Shown: one piece after another, positions 5,189-9,006 of the stretch
Position numbering within the stretch: position 1 is the stretch's first letter
How the letters are laid out: every line of letters begins with the position of its first letter
NCBI GenBank assembly: GCA_937919795.1
Contig: CALFOA010000151.1
Location: 1-11,196, forward strand
DNA: 11,196 nt
Direction of reading: 5' to 3'
Source of the DNA: an uncultured Neisseria sp.
Lineage (GTDB): Bacteria; Pseudomonadota; Gammaproteobacteria; Burkholderiales; Neisseriaceae
Notes under the pieces: model-generated
What the model saw: only the letters and a program-made list of their open reading frames with translations
Database searches by the model: none
Told to the model about the DNA's origin: nothing
Translations under genes and position numbers: made by a program

Positions 5189-5229
5189 CGCGATTCTTGA
5201 ATCCGACATGACTGCGTTACCGTCATCTT

Positions 5230-5249
5230 GTCGGATACGGGTATCCGAC
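5230..5249. terminator. palindrome between convergent genes (short repeat, copy 2)
   Basis: GTCGGATACGGGTATCCGAC is a nine-base perfect inverted repeat with a two-base centre. It sits between the convergent nnrU and small membrane genes and could end both transcripts. It is the reverse complement of the copy at 3925-3943. The left arm can also pair with TCCGACATGAC at 5202-5212, giving an alternative fold. Confidence 0.6.
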
Positions 5250-5257
5250 CTACTAGG

Positions 5258-5619: not shown

Positions 5620-8600
5620 ATGAACCCCACCCCAACCGCCGTTTCCATCCAGTCCCTCAGCCACCGCTACGGCAAAAACAAAACCCTTGCGCTGGATAAT
5701 GTCTCGCTCACCATCCCGCGCGGGGTGACTGTGGGCTTGATCGGGCCGGACGGGGTGGGCAAATCGACGTTGTTGTCGCTGATGGCGGGGGTGCGGGTCA
5801 TTCAGCAGGGCACAGTGACGGTGTTGGGCGGCGATATGGCCGATAAAGCCGTGCGCCGTGATTTGTCGCACCGCATCGCCTATATGCCGCAGGGTTTGGG
5901 CAAGAATCTGTATCCCACCTTGAGCGTGTATGAAAACGTTGACTTTCATGCGCGGCTGTATGGTTTGGACGCGACAGCGCGCCAGGCGAGAATTGCGCGG
6001 CTGCTGGCCGCCACCGGCCTCGCGCCGTTTCCCAACCGCGCCGCCGGCAAGCTCTCGGGCGGCATGAAGCAAAAGCTGAGCCTGTGTTGCGCGCTGGTGC
6101 ATTCGCCCGATTTGCTGATTCTGGATGAGCCGACCACCGGTGTGGATCCGCTGTCGCGCCGCCAGTTTTGGTCCTTGGTAAACGATTTGCGCGCCGAACA
6201 CGCAGGGATGACGGTGGTGGTGGCGACCGCTTATATCGAAGAAGCCGAGCAGTTTGAACACCTGCTGGCGATGGACGCGGGCAAGCTGCTGGTGAACCGC
6301 CCCACCCGCGAAGTGATGGCGGACTATCAAACCGATACGCTGGAAGAGGCGTATATCCAAATGCTGCCGCCCGAAAAACAGCAAGGCTCGGGCAGGCTGG
6401 AGATTACGCCGTTTGTGTCCGACCCCGCTTCGCCGCCAGCGATGGAAGCGCACGGGCTGACCAAGCGCTTCGGCAAATTCACCGCAGTCGACCATGTGAG
6501 CTTCACCATTCAGAAAGGCGAGATTTTCGGCTTTCTCGGCAGCAACGGCTGCGGCAAATCCACCACCATGAAAATGCTCACTGGCCTGTTAGATGCAACG
6601 GAAGGCACGGCAGAGTTGCTTGGCAAGCCCATCAATGCGGACGGCATGGACGTCAAAATGCGCGTGGGTTATATGTCGCAGGCGTTTTCGCTGTATGAAG
6701 AATTGAGCGTGCGCCAAAACCTGAAGCTGCACGCCAAGCTGTATCAGATGGGCAGCCGCGGCGAGGCAGCAGTCAACGAAGCGTTGCAACAGTTTGACCT
6801 GCAAGAGGTGGCCGACACCGCCCCCGCTTCGCTGCCCTTAGGCATCCGCCAACGCCTGCAACTGGCCGCCGCCTGCCTGCACCACCCCGAAGTGCTGATT
6901 CTCGACGAACCCACTTCCGGCGTCGATCCCGCCGCCCGCGATATGTTCTGGCGCACGCTGCTGAAGCTGTCGCGCGAAGACAAAATCACCATATTCGTCT
7001 CCACCCATTTTATGAACGAGGCCGAACGCTGCGACCGCATCTCCTTCATGCACAAAGGCCGCGTGCTGGCGGTCGGCACGCCGGATGAATTGGTGGCGCA
7101 ATATCGGGCTGCTAATTTGGAAGAAGCGTTTATTCATTATTTGGAAGAGGATGAAGCGCGGGAAGCGGCGGCGGAGGGGCGGTTGACTGAAAACTTAAAC
7201 CCCAACAGCAACGCCGCTCCCTCCCCCGTGGCGACCGCAGGAAGGGGCTGGGGAGAGGGCAAAACGCCTGAATCTTCCGCAAATGTTTCCGAAGCTCAAC
7301 CAAGCCCTCTCCCTAACCCTCCCCCACGGGGGAGGGGACAGATTGCTGAAGTTTCAGACGGCCTATCATCCACCGACAAGCCGTCTGAAAGCGTGGCTGA
7401 ATTAGCCAAGCGCGTGATTGCTGCTGATAAGAATGAATGCCTGTCTGAAAACTTAAATCCCAACAGCAACGCTACTCCCTCCCCCGTGGGGGAGGGCTGG
7501 GGAGAGGGCAAAACGTCTGAATCTTCCACAAATGTTTCCGAAGCCCCAACAAGCCCTCTCCCTAACCCTCCCCCACGGGGGAGGGAACAGGTTGCTGAAG
7601 TTTCAGACAGCCTATCTTCAACCAACCACCAATCGGATACCGACACCTCCCCTCCCCAGCTTGCGGGGGAGGGTCAGGGTGGGGGCGTTTCGGATACCAC
7701 CCACGTTTCCGAAGCCCAAACCGCCACCCGCCCCCTAGCCCCCTCCCGCCAGCGGGTGGGGGAACAGGCTGCTGGAGTTTCAGACGGCCTTGCATCAATC
7801 AACAAGCCGTCTGAAAAAACAGACAATAAACCAGAATGCCTGTCTGAAAACGCCAATACCCGCAACACCCATACCCTCAAATACTGGCTCGCCACCGTTT
7901 TCACCTTTGCCAATCGTGAAACTAAAGAGCTGCTGCGCGACAAAATCCGTCTGTTTTTCGCGGTATTCGGTCCACTCATCATGATGGCAGCGGTCGCATG
8001 GGGGATATCGTTTGATGTGCAAAACCTCAAATTCGCGGTGTATGACCGCGACCAGAGTTCCGACAGCCGCGCGCTGACTGAATACTTTTCCGGATCACGT
8101 TATTTCATTGAACAGCCACCGCTGCAATCGGCCGAGCAGATAGACATCACACTCAAAAGCTCGCAGGCAGTACTGATTATCGATATTCCGTCAGGTTTTG
8201 GCCGTGACTTGCAGCTCGGGCAAAAACCCGAAGTGGGCTTTTATATCGATGGCTCCCTACCCTTTAATGCGGCCAATATCCAAGGCTATGTCAACAGCCT
8301 GGTTTCCGCCTACACGCGCGACCAAATCCGCGCAACAGGCAGACCCATATCTTTGCAAGCAGCCGCTGGAATTGAAGTGCGTTATATGTATAACCAAGAC
8401 TTCAACAGCATCAATGCCATTGCGCCCGGTGTCATCATGATGGTGCTCATCATGATACCGGCCATGATGGCGGCAATAGGCGTAGTGCGCGAACGCGAAA
8501 TCGGCTCAATCGCCAATTTCCATGCCTCACCCGCCAGTACGTCGCAATACCTGATTGGCAAACAGCTGCCCTACATTGGCGCAGGCATGGTGAACTTTAT

Positions 8601-9006
8601 CTCGCTGGCGCTGATGATGGTTTTCTGGTTCAACGTTCCACCGAAAGGTTCGCTCATCGCGTTGCTACTTGGCACCTTCATGGTTGTCTGTGCATCCACC
8701 GCGGTGGGGCTGCTGATTTCCTGCTTTGTGCGCTCGCAACTGGCCGCAATTTTTGCGGCAGCAATTCTGACCATGCTTACCACGGTGAACTATTCGGGCT
8801 TTCTCTACCCGCTTTCCACCATGAGCGGAAGCGCCTACGTCATCGGAAAAATCTATCCCGCCTCGTGGTACCACAATGTCAGCATGGGCGGCTTCACCAA
8901 AAGTCTGGGCTTTGGCGATTTGCAACAGGAATTTCTGGTGATGGCCACATTCGCACTGACATGCGTGGCGCTGGCCTGCGTGCTGCTGAAAAAACAGGAA
9001 AAATGA
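5620..9006 (+). CDS. rbbA: RbbA-type ABC exporter: two ATPase domains fused to an ABC-2 permease, with expanded repeat linker
   Basis: This 1128-residue inner-membrane protein would drive export with ATP. ABC domain 1 has Walker A GPDGVGKST (42-50), signature LSGGMKQ (145-151) and Walker B LLILDEPTTG (165-174). ABC domain 2 has Walker A GSNGCGKST (307-315) and Walker B at about 425-434. Its signature is degenerate (LPLGIRQRL, 406-414), as I recall for E. coli RbbA. Residues about 521-750 are a low-complexity linker made of repeats. The permease half follows: a first membrane helix near 777-798, a periplasmic domain containing SGSRYFIEQPPLQ, then a cluster of helices ending in LLKKQEK. E. coli RbbA is about 911 residues, so the extra length is close to that of the linker. 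E. coli RbbA was first described as ribosome-associated; here the locus argues for export with YhiI and YhhJ. There is no clear ribosome binding site before 5620. Confidence 0.93.
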   Translation: MNPTPTAVSIQSLSHRYGKNKTLALDNVSLTIPRGVTVGLIGPDGVGKSTLLSLMAGVRVIQQGTVTVLGGDMADKAVRRDLSHRIAYMPQGLGKNLYPTLSVYENVDFHARLYGLDATARQARIARLLAATGLAPFPNRAAGKLSGGMKQKLSLCCALVHSPDLLILDEPTTGVDPLSRRQFWSLVNDLRAEHAGMTVVVATAYIEEAEQFEHLLAMDAGKLLVNRPTREVMADYQTDTLEEAYIQMLPPEKQQGSGRLEITPFVSDPASPPAMEAHGLTKRFGKFTAVDHVSFTIQKGEIFGFLGSNGCGKSTTMKMLTGLLDATEGTAELLGKPINADGMDVKMRVGYMSQAFSLYEELSVRQNLKLHAKLYQMGSRGEAAVNEALQQFDLQEVADTAPASLPLGIRQRLQLAAACLHHPEVLILDEPTSGVDPAARDMFWRTLLKLSREDKITIFVSTHFMNEAERCDRISFMHKGRVLAVGTPDELVAQYRAANLEEAFIHYLEEDEAREAAAEGRLTENLNPNSNAAPSPVATAGRGWGEGKTPESSANVSEAQPSPLPNPPPRGRGQIAEVSDGLSSTDKPSESVAELAKRVIAADKNECLSENLNPNSNATPSPVGEGWGEGKTSESSTNVSEAPTSPLPNPPPRGREQVAEVSDSLSSTNHQSDTDTSPPQLAGEGQGGGVSDTTHVSEAQTATRPLAPSRQRVGEQAAGVSDGLASINKPSEKTDNKPECLSENANTRNTHTLKYWLATVFTFANRETKELLRDKIRLFFAVFGPLIMMAAVAWGISFDVQNLKFAVYDRDQSSDSRALTEYFSGSRYFIEQPPLQSAEQIDITLKSSQAVLIIDIPSGFGRDLQLGQKPEVGFYIDGSLPFNAANIQGYVNSLVSAYTRDQIRATGRPISLQAAAGIEVRYMYNQDFNSINAIAPGVIMMVLIMIPAMMAAIGVVREREIGSIANFHASPASTSQYLIGKQLPYIGAGMVNFISLALMMVFWFNVPPKGSLIALLLGTFMVVCASTAVGLLISCFVRSQLAAIFAAAILTMLTTVNYSGFLYPLSTMSGSAYVIGKIYPASWYHNVSMGGFTKSLGFGDLQQEFLVMATFALTCVALACVLLKKQEK
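7187..7848 (+). repeat. in-frame array of three REP/DUS cassettes inside rbbA
   Basis: Copies 1 (from 7187) and 2 (from 7445) are offset by 258 bases. They encode near-identical text, ENLNPNSNA..PSPV..GWGEGK and SPLPNPPPRGR, and differ by a nine-base in-frame indel. Copy 3 (7646-7848) is more diverged. Each copy has two facing GC-rich palindromic arms: 7219-7259 with 7305-7336, 7477-7508 with 7554-7585, and 7646-7685 with 7724-7762. DUS copies lie between and after them: 7353-7364, 7380-7389, 7438-7449, 7602-7613 (variant), 7779-7790, 7806-7815 and 7837-7848. All 662 bases stay in frame without a stop. Confidence 0.9.

What the first reader, a model, noticed from the sequence alone, without database searches (positions are those of the whole stretch)
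7180..7866. Intergenic-type repeats (REP palindromes and DUS) translated as a giant interdomain linker in RbbA
The join between the second ATPase domain and the permease is a few tens of residues in E. coli RbbA as I recall it. Here it is about 230 residues, encoded almost entirely by GC-rich palindromes and DNA uptake sequences that normally lie between genes. The frame is open throughout. The repeats therefore serve as both mobile or uptake DNA and protein: TGCCTGTCTGAA reads CLSE and GCCGTCTGAA reads PSE. The linker is rich in Pro, Ser, Gly and Glu and probably disordered. It may loosen coupling between ATPase and permease, or simply be tolerated.
Basis: partly seen in the sequence, partly recalled or inferred. 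Interest (0 to 1): 0.85.

Follow-up and report, generated by a model that had tools for sequence, protein, structure and literature searches.

The report
Uptake-repeat linkers inside Neisseria proteins
In Neisseria relatives a floppy stretch inside a transporter-like protein has grown in step with short DNA tags that these bacteria use to recognise their own DNA, and similar linkers in other proteins have taken in whole extra domains.

Summary
The rbbA frame (5620-9006) is open, and about 230 residues between the second ATPase and the permease (nt 7195-7875) carry four exact DUS, two wadDUS and six REP-like palindromes, together 284 of 687 nt, so "almost entirely" is too strong. A structure model leaves the stretch without helix or strand (pLDDT mostly under 50). 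In 51 rbbA genes (window plus 50 Neisseriaceae loci) linker length is about 34 aa plus 24 aa per DUS (phylogenetic contrasts r 0.94); DUS density is 9.0/kb in linkers, 0.39/kb in the rest of the genes. All 84 canonical DUS in linkers read PSE or SDG; 35 of 38 close inverted pairs have the non-terminator order. In six related genes dN/dS is about 0.5 in the linker, 0.1 beside it. Cassettes of the same kind sit in HrpA, Mfd and Rhs proteins (16 of 16 sites in one frame per orientation), and some linkers enclose whole domains. DUS lie near domain edges only modestly more often than chance. I read this as a tolerated disordered slot that grows with DUS-bearing DNA. In-frame REPs and DUS in permissive gene regions are known; dose-dependent growth and enclosed domains were not found in nine searches.

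The parts
5620..9006 (+). rbbA ORF, 1128 aa: two ABC ATPase domains, long linker, ABC-2 permease
   Evidence: ORF; NF033858 1367.3 bits (cut-off 1050); ABC_tran and ABC2_membrane_3
7195..7875 (+). structureless interdomain linker (aa 526-752)
   Evidence: no helix or strand, pLDDT mostly under 50; 246 aa between alignment anchors
7353..7362 (-). DUS (TTCAGACGGC on +), read SDG; first half of inverted pair
7380..7389 (+). DUS (GCCGTCTGAA), read PSE; second half of pair, 17 nt apart
7438..7449 (+). wadDUS 12-mer TGCCTGTCTGAA, read CLSE
7602..7611 (-). DUS with one mismatch (TTCAGACAGC), read SDS
7779..7788 (-). DUS, read SDG; first half of second inverted pair
7806..7815 (+). DUS, read PSE; second half of second pair
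7837..7848 (+). wadDUS 12-mer, read CLSE
7218..7260 (+). REP-like element, degenerate forward copy (PSPVATAGRGWGEG)
7304..7336 (-). REP palindrome, reverse copy, read SPLPNPPPRGR
   Evidence: D1, I2
7476..7509 (+). REP palindrome, forward copy, read PSPVGEGWGEG
   Evidence: I1, 94% complementary to 7553-7586
7553..7586 (-). REP palindrome, reverse copy, read SPLPNPPPRGR
   Evidence: I1
7656..7688 (+). REP-like variant copy
   Evidence: (I3, I4 overlap it, 79-86% complementary to other copies)
7730..7762 (-). REP-like variant copy
   Evidence: (D1, 75%)
7245..7393 (+). first copy of duplicated unit
   Evidence: D2
7494..7642 (+). second copy of duplicated unit, 88% identical, spacing 249 nt (83 codons)
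   Evidence: D2
7951..8979 (+). ABC-2 permease domain of RbbA (aa 778-1120)
   Evidence: PF12698

Best explanation
The join between the second ATPase and the permease of RbbA is a permissive, disordered slot that in Neisseriaceae grows in frame by gain and duplication of DNA that bears uptake sequences, with REPs and other intergenic repeats carried along. Shown here: length scales with DUS number, canonical DUS use one reading frame per orientation, terminator-type pairs are rare, constraint is relaxed, the predicted structure is disordered, and cassettes of the same kind occur in HrpA, Mfd and Rhs proteins. Inferred: DUS-bearing fragments enter by natural transformation and recombine with DUS-bearing linkers; insertions that break the frame, stop transcription or disturb the folded domains are lost; the linker itself is mostly tolerated, not needed.
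For: 51 rbbA genes: 131 motif hits (seven dialect motifs sought, six found; overlapping king/sim dyads count twice) in linkers (9.0/kb) against 53 in the rest of the same genes (0.39/kb), Spearman 0.90; independent contrasts r 0.94, 50 contrasts; fit 34 aa + 24 aa per DUS, with 20 of 21 DUS-free linkers at 30-44 aa. All 84 canonical DUS in linkers read PSE (62) or SDG (22). Inverted DUS pairs no more than 30 nt apart: 35 SDG>PSE to 1 PSE>SDG in linkers, but 18 to 80 in DNA of 40 fetched stretches not covered by an ORF of 300 aa or more, 68 of those 80 beside a T or A run. Median pairwise dN/dS 0.52 in the linker, 0.12 and 0.10 either side, 15 pairs of six related genes; G055 differs by an extra 83-aa unit. 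Linker modelled without structure. 16 of 98 REP sites lie in HrpA, Mfd or Rhs genes, 16 of 16 in the frames GEGWGEG or PLPN/SP, against 24 of 80 elsewhere by longest covering frame. In 18 RbbA proteins closest in the linker the span is 114-470 aa. N and C parts share one ORF in 50 of 50 loci.
Against: No expression data; transformation as the route is not tested. Dialect mismatch: three wadDUS-dominant genomes (G015, G035, G050) hold 5, 4 and 4 canonical DUS and no wadDUS in the linker; a fourth, G039, holds neither; G022, with 3298 canonical DUS, holds four mucDUS and none canonical. So present-day uptake does not explain what is there. Linker dN/dS near 0.5, not 1, leaves room for function. 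Inside ORFs of 300 aa or more (stop to stop, some spurious) of the 40 stretches, pairs are 14 PSE>SDG to 9 SDG>PSE, 12 of the 14 beside a T or A run, so the order rule is not shown for coding DNA at large. Five of 131 linker hits, all king or sim, use other frames. L099 has a 68-aa linker with no exact DUS. Six of the 55 genomes with RbbA were not measured among the 50 loci (G001, as L025, is in the other set; five were broken or weak).
Confidence: 0.72

Rival explanations
1. The linker DUS are kept by selection for uptake: rbbA carries them so that it is efficiently transformed, and the coding role is incidental.
For: DUS density in the linker is 23 times that of the rest of the gene; linkers with mucDUS occur in genomes poor in canonical DUS (G016, G028, G033, G036; mucDUS itself was not counted genome-wide). 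Treangen 2008 (PMC2397512, section 11 read) reports that DUS themselves are highly conserved.
Against: A few DUS per gene should suffice (inference), yet up to 12 sit in one linker (L105). wadDUS-dominant genomes keep the other dialect in the linker, and G022 shows a mismatch of another kind. Uptake selection alone does not explain about 24 added aa per DUS.
Confidence: 0.15
2. The long linker is functional: its length or composition tunes coupling between the ATPases and the permease, or binds a partner.
For: dN/dS 0.52 is below 1; N and C parts share one frame in 50 of 50 loci.
Against: Length varies from 30 to 280 aa within the family and content differs by lineage; spans of 114-470 aa occur in the closest set; 20 of 21 DUS-free linkers stay at 30-44 aa.
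Confidence: 0.12
3. The cassettes are active REP-type mobile elements that insert into genes as Rickettsia palindromic elements do, and the DUS are passengers.
For: The REP core occurs in 34 of 83 genomes, up to 126 exact sites, with no match to the reversed control in the table; it lies both inside HrpA, Mfd and Rhs genes and elsewhere. RAYT family PF01797 is found in 34 of 83 genomes, among them REP-rich G028, G036, G044 and G066.
Against: By my regular expression only the window, L091 and L103 of the 51 rbbA linkers hold the REP core, while DUS are in 30 of 51. PF01797 is not found at E 1e-5 in G016, G031, G033, G048 or G067, five of the nine genomes with 20 or more REP sites.
Confidence: 0.17
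4. Assembly or annotation artefact: the long ORF is a misjoin or an intergenic region read through.
For: The 19 closest RbbA proteins come from ENA-sourced, probably metagenomic, sequence, one of them also in an NCBI source, and repeats are prone to misassembly.
Against: Large linkers occur in genomes with the gene deep in a long contig (G033, G048, G055). N- and C-terminal parts share one frame in 50 of 50 loci and both sides are under strong purifying selection.
Confidence: 0.04

Closest known systems
Rickettsia palindromic elements and intragenic GTAG/CGTC REPs (Di Nocera 2013, PMC3733652, passages read)
   Same: Palindromic repeats, mostly between genes, found in frame inside genes, often repair genes, and suggested to be neutral in flexible linkers or loops.
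   Different: The larger REP-encoded stretches named there are 43-82 aa; here 114-470 aa in the closest RbbA set. DUS, not REPs, follow length across the family, and whole domains are enclosed in some linkers. I did not test the GTAG/CGTC tag on this REP.
Intragenic DNA uptake sequences (Frye 2013, PMC3630211, passages read; Treangen 2008, PMC2397512, passages and section 11 read)
   Same: Same motifs and dialects; DUS known inside genes, in regions that tolerate substitution. Frye notes that all dialects but king3DUS hold a stop in one frame.
   Different: Treangen mentions a lack of DUS in gained and lost regions; here the gained linker DNA is the DUS-rich part. Arrays that lengthen a linker in proportion were not described in the parts I read.
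DUS-containing terminators (Ambur 2007, seen only as a reference title; form recalled)
   Same: Inverted DUS pairs.
   Different: Linker pairs mostly have the opposite order (SDG then PSE, 35 of 38), and no plus-strand terminator was found in the window's linker.
Repeat-driven domain shuffling in proteins (general knowledge, no call)
   Same: Domains gained between existing domains.
   Different: The surrounding DNA here is uptake sequences and REPs rather than introns or transposon ends.

Membership tests
RbbA (ribosome-associated ATPase, NF033858) | Score above the curated cut-off | tested here: met
   1367.3 bits against 1050
RbbA (ribosome-associated ATPase, NF033858) | Two ABC ATPase domains followed by an ABC-2 permease in one chain | tested here: met
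   PF00005 in two stretches, PF12698 at aa 778-1120
RbbA (ribosome-associated ATPase, NF033858) | Ribosome-bound ATPase activity | not testable with these tools
   needs protein
DNA uptake sequence (DUS/wadDUS) | Exact core motif, far more often than chance | tested here: met
   4 DUS and 2 wadDUS in the linker, about 0.001 DUS expected; both motifs occur by the thousand in some relatives. Dialect letters other than the two in the finding are recalled.
DNA uptake sequence (DUS/wadDUS) | Promotes uptake of the DNA that bears it | not testable with these tools
   needs transformation assays
Protein-coding palindromic repeats (RPE/intragenic REP kind) | Same repeat found in several places, in frame within genes and elsewhere | tested here: met
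   In relatives G016, G024, G028: 98 of 103 sites examined, 16 within HrpA, Mfd or Rhs genes. The window's own genome is not held.
Protein-coding palindromic repeats (RPE/intragenic REP kind) | Host protein stays functional | not testable with these tools
   only indirect: flanking domains at dN/dS about 0.1 in six related genes
RAYT-mobilised REP/REPIN | RAYT transposase (PF01797) in the same genome | tested here: inconclusive
   Found in 4 (G028, G036, G044, G066) and not in 5 (G016, G031, G033, G048, G067) of nine relatives with 20 or more REP sites; 34 of 83 overall. Own genome not held.
GTAG/CGTC REP superfamilies | GTAG or CGTC tag at one end | not tested
   not examined

The most novel reading that the evidence does not exclude
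Uptake sequences act as joints for building proteins: DNA marked by DUS is taken up, recombines at short DUS or REP identities into DUS-bearing interdomain linkers, and so lengthens them and inserts complete folded domains in frame. RbbA, HrpA and Mfd linkers would then be acceptor sites of a transformation-driven, exon-shuffling-like process in bacteria. (Lowered from 0.35 in my draft after the control.)
Probability: 0.27. Interest if true: 0.92.

Novelty: new variant of a known kind. Interest (0 to 1): 0.7.

Why it matters
It turns a curiosity in one gene into a measurable rule, about 24 residues of linker per uptake sequence. It shows what DNA uptake tags can do at the protein level, and gives a natural series of one protein with linkers from 30 to 280 residues (470 with a domain inside) for testing how interdomain linkers matter. 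If recombination at uptake sequences brings in the enclosed domains, natural transformation would be a source of new domain combinations in a genus that includes human pathogens.

Tried and rejected
Rejected: that the linker DUS pairs are displaced terminators, since 35 of 38 have the reverse order and no plus-strand terminator was found in 7100-7960. Rejected: that each linker carries its genome's dominant dialect; G015, G035, G050 and G022 contradict it. Not supported: a separate permease start by ATG in the linker (GTG and TTG codons exist). Left open: RAYT as the mover.

Weakened on checking: DUS as edges of enclosed domains. 11 of 14 domain instances have a DUS motif within 30 nt of an edge, but random points in the same linkers give 7.1 expected, and 5 have it at both edges against 3.0; the six HrpA small domains and the four HrpA GNAT domains of one type share ancestry, and the 30-nt limit was set.

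Led nowhere: tandem repeat finder found no array; no RbbA chain was listed at E 1e-40 among solved structures. Pfam and NCBIfam gave nothing convincing for the small enclosed domain (best E 0.0049, below its cut-off); Foldseek gave nothing at E 0.001, and the second look only middling Z (best 6.6, 67 residues, rmsd 3.5), the range of a common small-barrel arrangement; only two of its five models reached mean pLDDT 92, the others 58-69. Literature: nine searches; no listed title or abstract start described DUS-built linkers or domains within them, but the library lacks most subscription journals and two papers I wanted are not held.

Rows dropped: one of 80 loci of the set had no measurable linker; L025 in that set is itself Neisseriaceae; L043 (117 aa) is the outlier. 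Of 55 genomes with RbbA, 49 gave the 50 loci used (G006 gave two); G001 was measured as L025; G021, G041, G062, G077 (contig ends or a break outside the linker) and G079 (weak match) were not used. P0019 was not measured. Mfd gaps were read by hand for 39 of 79 genomes; those left out include long ones (G022, G029, G036, G049, ORFs of 1316-1381 aa) as well as ordinary ones. Five of 103 REP sites in G016, G024 and G028 were not examined.

Full report
What is there. The window encodes RbbA on the plus strand, 5620-9006, 1128 aa, in one open frame. Between the second ATPase and the permease lies a stretch of 246 aa by alignment anchors. It holds four exact DUS in two inverted pairs, two wadDUS, one near-DUS and six REP-like palindromes in both orientations, plus a duplication with 249-nt spacing. 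Exact DUS and REP-like stretches make up 284 of 687 nt. The other five frames hold 3-17 stops, and a Markov model would leave this one open in about 0.2% of trials. A model of aa 269-900 built on 40 sequences gives the second ATPase and the start of the permease mostly with high confidence and leaves aa 526-752 with no helix or strand.

Is it peculiar to this gene copy? No. A search with the linker listed 19 RbbA proteins among its first 20 hits; in the 18 I could measure, the span between two motif anchors runs from 114 to 470 aa, 257 in the window, with differing numbers and orders of similar units. One, P0007, encloses an alpha/beta hydrolase (PF00561, aa 553-796). The other hits listed carry domains of HrpA or Mfd, and the nine whose sequence I printed have the same kind of cassette in a linker.

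Family survey. Of 83 Neisseriaceae genomes, 55 have RbbA at E 1e-60. Fifty loci from 49 of them, plus the window, gave linkers of 30-280 aa; 78 of 79 measured loci of the set have 26-49 aa. In the 51 genes, hits to seven dialect motifs number 131 in linkers and 53 elsewhere, 9.0 against 0.39 per kb; length and DUS count correlate at 0.90 and at 0.94 in phylogenetic contrasts on a tree of the flanking domains. The fit is 34 aa plus 24 aa per DUS; 20 of 21 DUS-free linkers are 30-44 aa. This is the main new result: the linker grows with the DUS.

Constraints. Canonical DUS have two stop-free frames forward and three in reverse, yet all 84 in linkers read PSE or SDG; related genes inherit these, so events are fewer than 84. 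Five king or sim hits use other frames. Inverted pairs up to 30 nt apart are 35 to 1 in the order SDG-PSE (35 to 3 up to 60 nt), against 18 to 80 in the fetched DNA outside ORFs of 300 aa. Inside such ORFs, some of them spurious, the count is 9 to 14, so I claim the rule for the RbbA linkers only. In six related genes the linker has median dN/dS 0.52 against 0.12 and 0.10 beside it, and one gene differs by an extra 83-aa unit. So coding, and probably transcription, filter what may stay, while the amino acids matter less.

Not only RbbA. The REP core is in 34 of 83 genomes. Of 98 sites examined in G016, G024 and G028 (of 103), 16 lie in nine ORFs of 300 aa or more, all matching HrpA, Mfd or Rhs-repeat families. 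All 16 use the same frame per orientation, against 24 of 80 elsewhere. In Mfd, a junction read by hand in 39 of 79 genomes is 7 aa or less in 25, 11-60 aa in 11 and 129, 152 and 269 aa in three; several long ones were not in that list. HrpA linkers hold one or two GNAT domains and an unnamed domain of about 76 aa.

Mechanism. I favour tolerated growth of a disordered slot by gain and duplication of DUS-bearing DNA. Shown: the dose relation, frame, pair order, constraint, predicted disorder. Inferred: uptake and recombination. Against simple uptake selection: wadDUS-dominant G015, G035, G050 keep canonical DUS in the linker and G022 has mucDUS in a genome of canonical DUS. RAYT-driven REP insertion stays open: PF01797 is found in four of nine REP-rich relatives.

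What is known. In-frame REPs in flexible linkers, with stretches up to 82 aa, are described (PMC3733652, passages), as are intragenic DUS in permissive regions (PMC2397512, section 11) and wadDUS (PMC3630211, passages). The listings of nine searches of an open-licence library showed no account of DUS-scaled linkers or of domains within them. Hence a new variant of a known kind, with a bolder reading that the evidence does not exclude.

Noticed in passing
L112:3109-3372; L186:5000-5299; L217; L216; L218: An unnamed domain of about 76 aa is shared by linkers of RbbA, HrpA and Mfd and also occurs free beside Rhs modules in G054; whether the free form is an immunity-like protein was not tested.
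   Followed up: partly
P0007 aa 553-796: An RbbA close to the window's has a whole alpha/beta hydrolase domain inside the linker, with a wadDUS-type peptide (ECLSEN) after it.
   Followed up: partly
L212 (HrpA of G013): One HrpA linker holds two different GNAT acetyltransferase domains and the small domain, strung between DUS-type motifs.
   Followed up: partly
L100, L104, L106 (G015, G035, G050); L094 (G022): Linker dialect differs from the genome's dominant one: canonical DUS in wadDUS genomes, and mucDUS in a canonical-DUS genome, as if imported or relict.
   Followed up: partly
L101, L104, L106: One linker DUS reads as an exact eikDUS core (GCTACCTGAA, dialect letters recalled) where relatives read RPSE: three adjacent changes from one dialect to another.
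   Followed up: no
5191-5250: A repeat with CGATTCTTGAATCCGACA and TTGTCGGATACGGGTATCCGACC upstream of rbbA resembles one translated as VGRILESDT...LSDT.IR in the Mfd linker of G013.
   Followed up: partly
P0004 linker; L096 linker: Peptides SFPRRRES and SRLRGND suggest that dRS3-type repeats are translated there too; the assignment is recalled, not tested.
   Followed up: no
L043: Oceanicella actignis RbbA has a 117-aa linker, the one outlier of the set; its content was not examined.
   Followed up: no
L178, L179, L180: Rhs-repeat proteins of G028 carry a REP read as PVGEGWGEG, in more than one paralogue.
   Followed up: no
7296-7646, 7674-8030: Antisense ORFs of 116 and 118 aa overlie the linker (PSPQPSPTGEG-type peptides); probably spurious products of the palindromes.
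   Followed up: no
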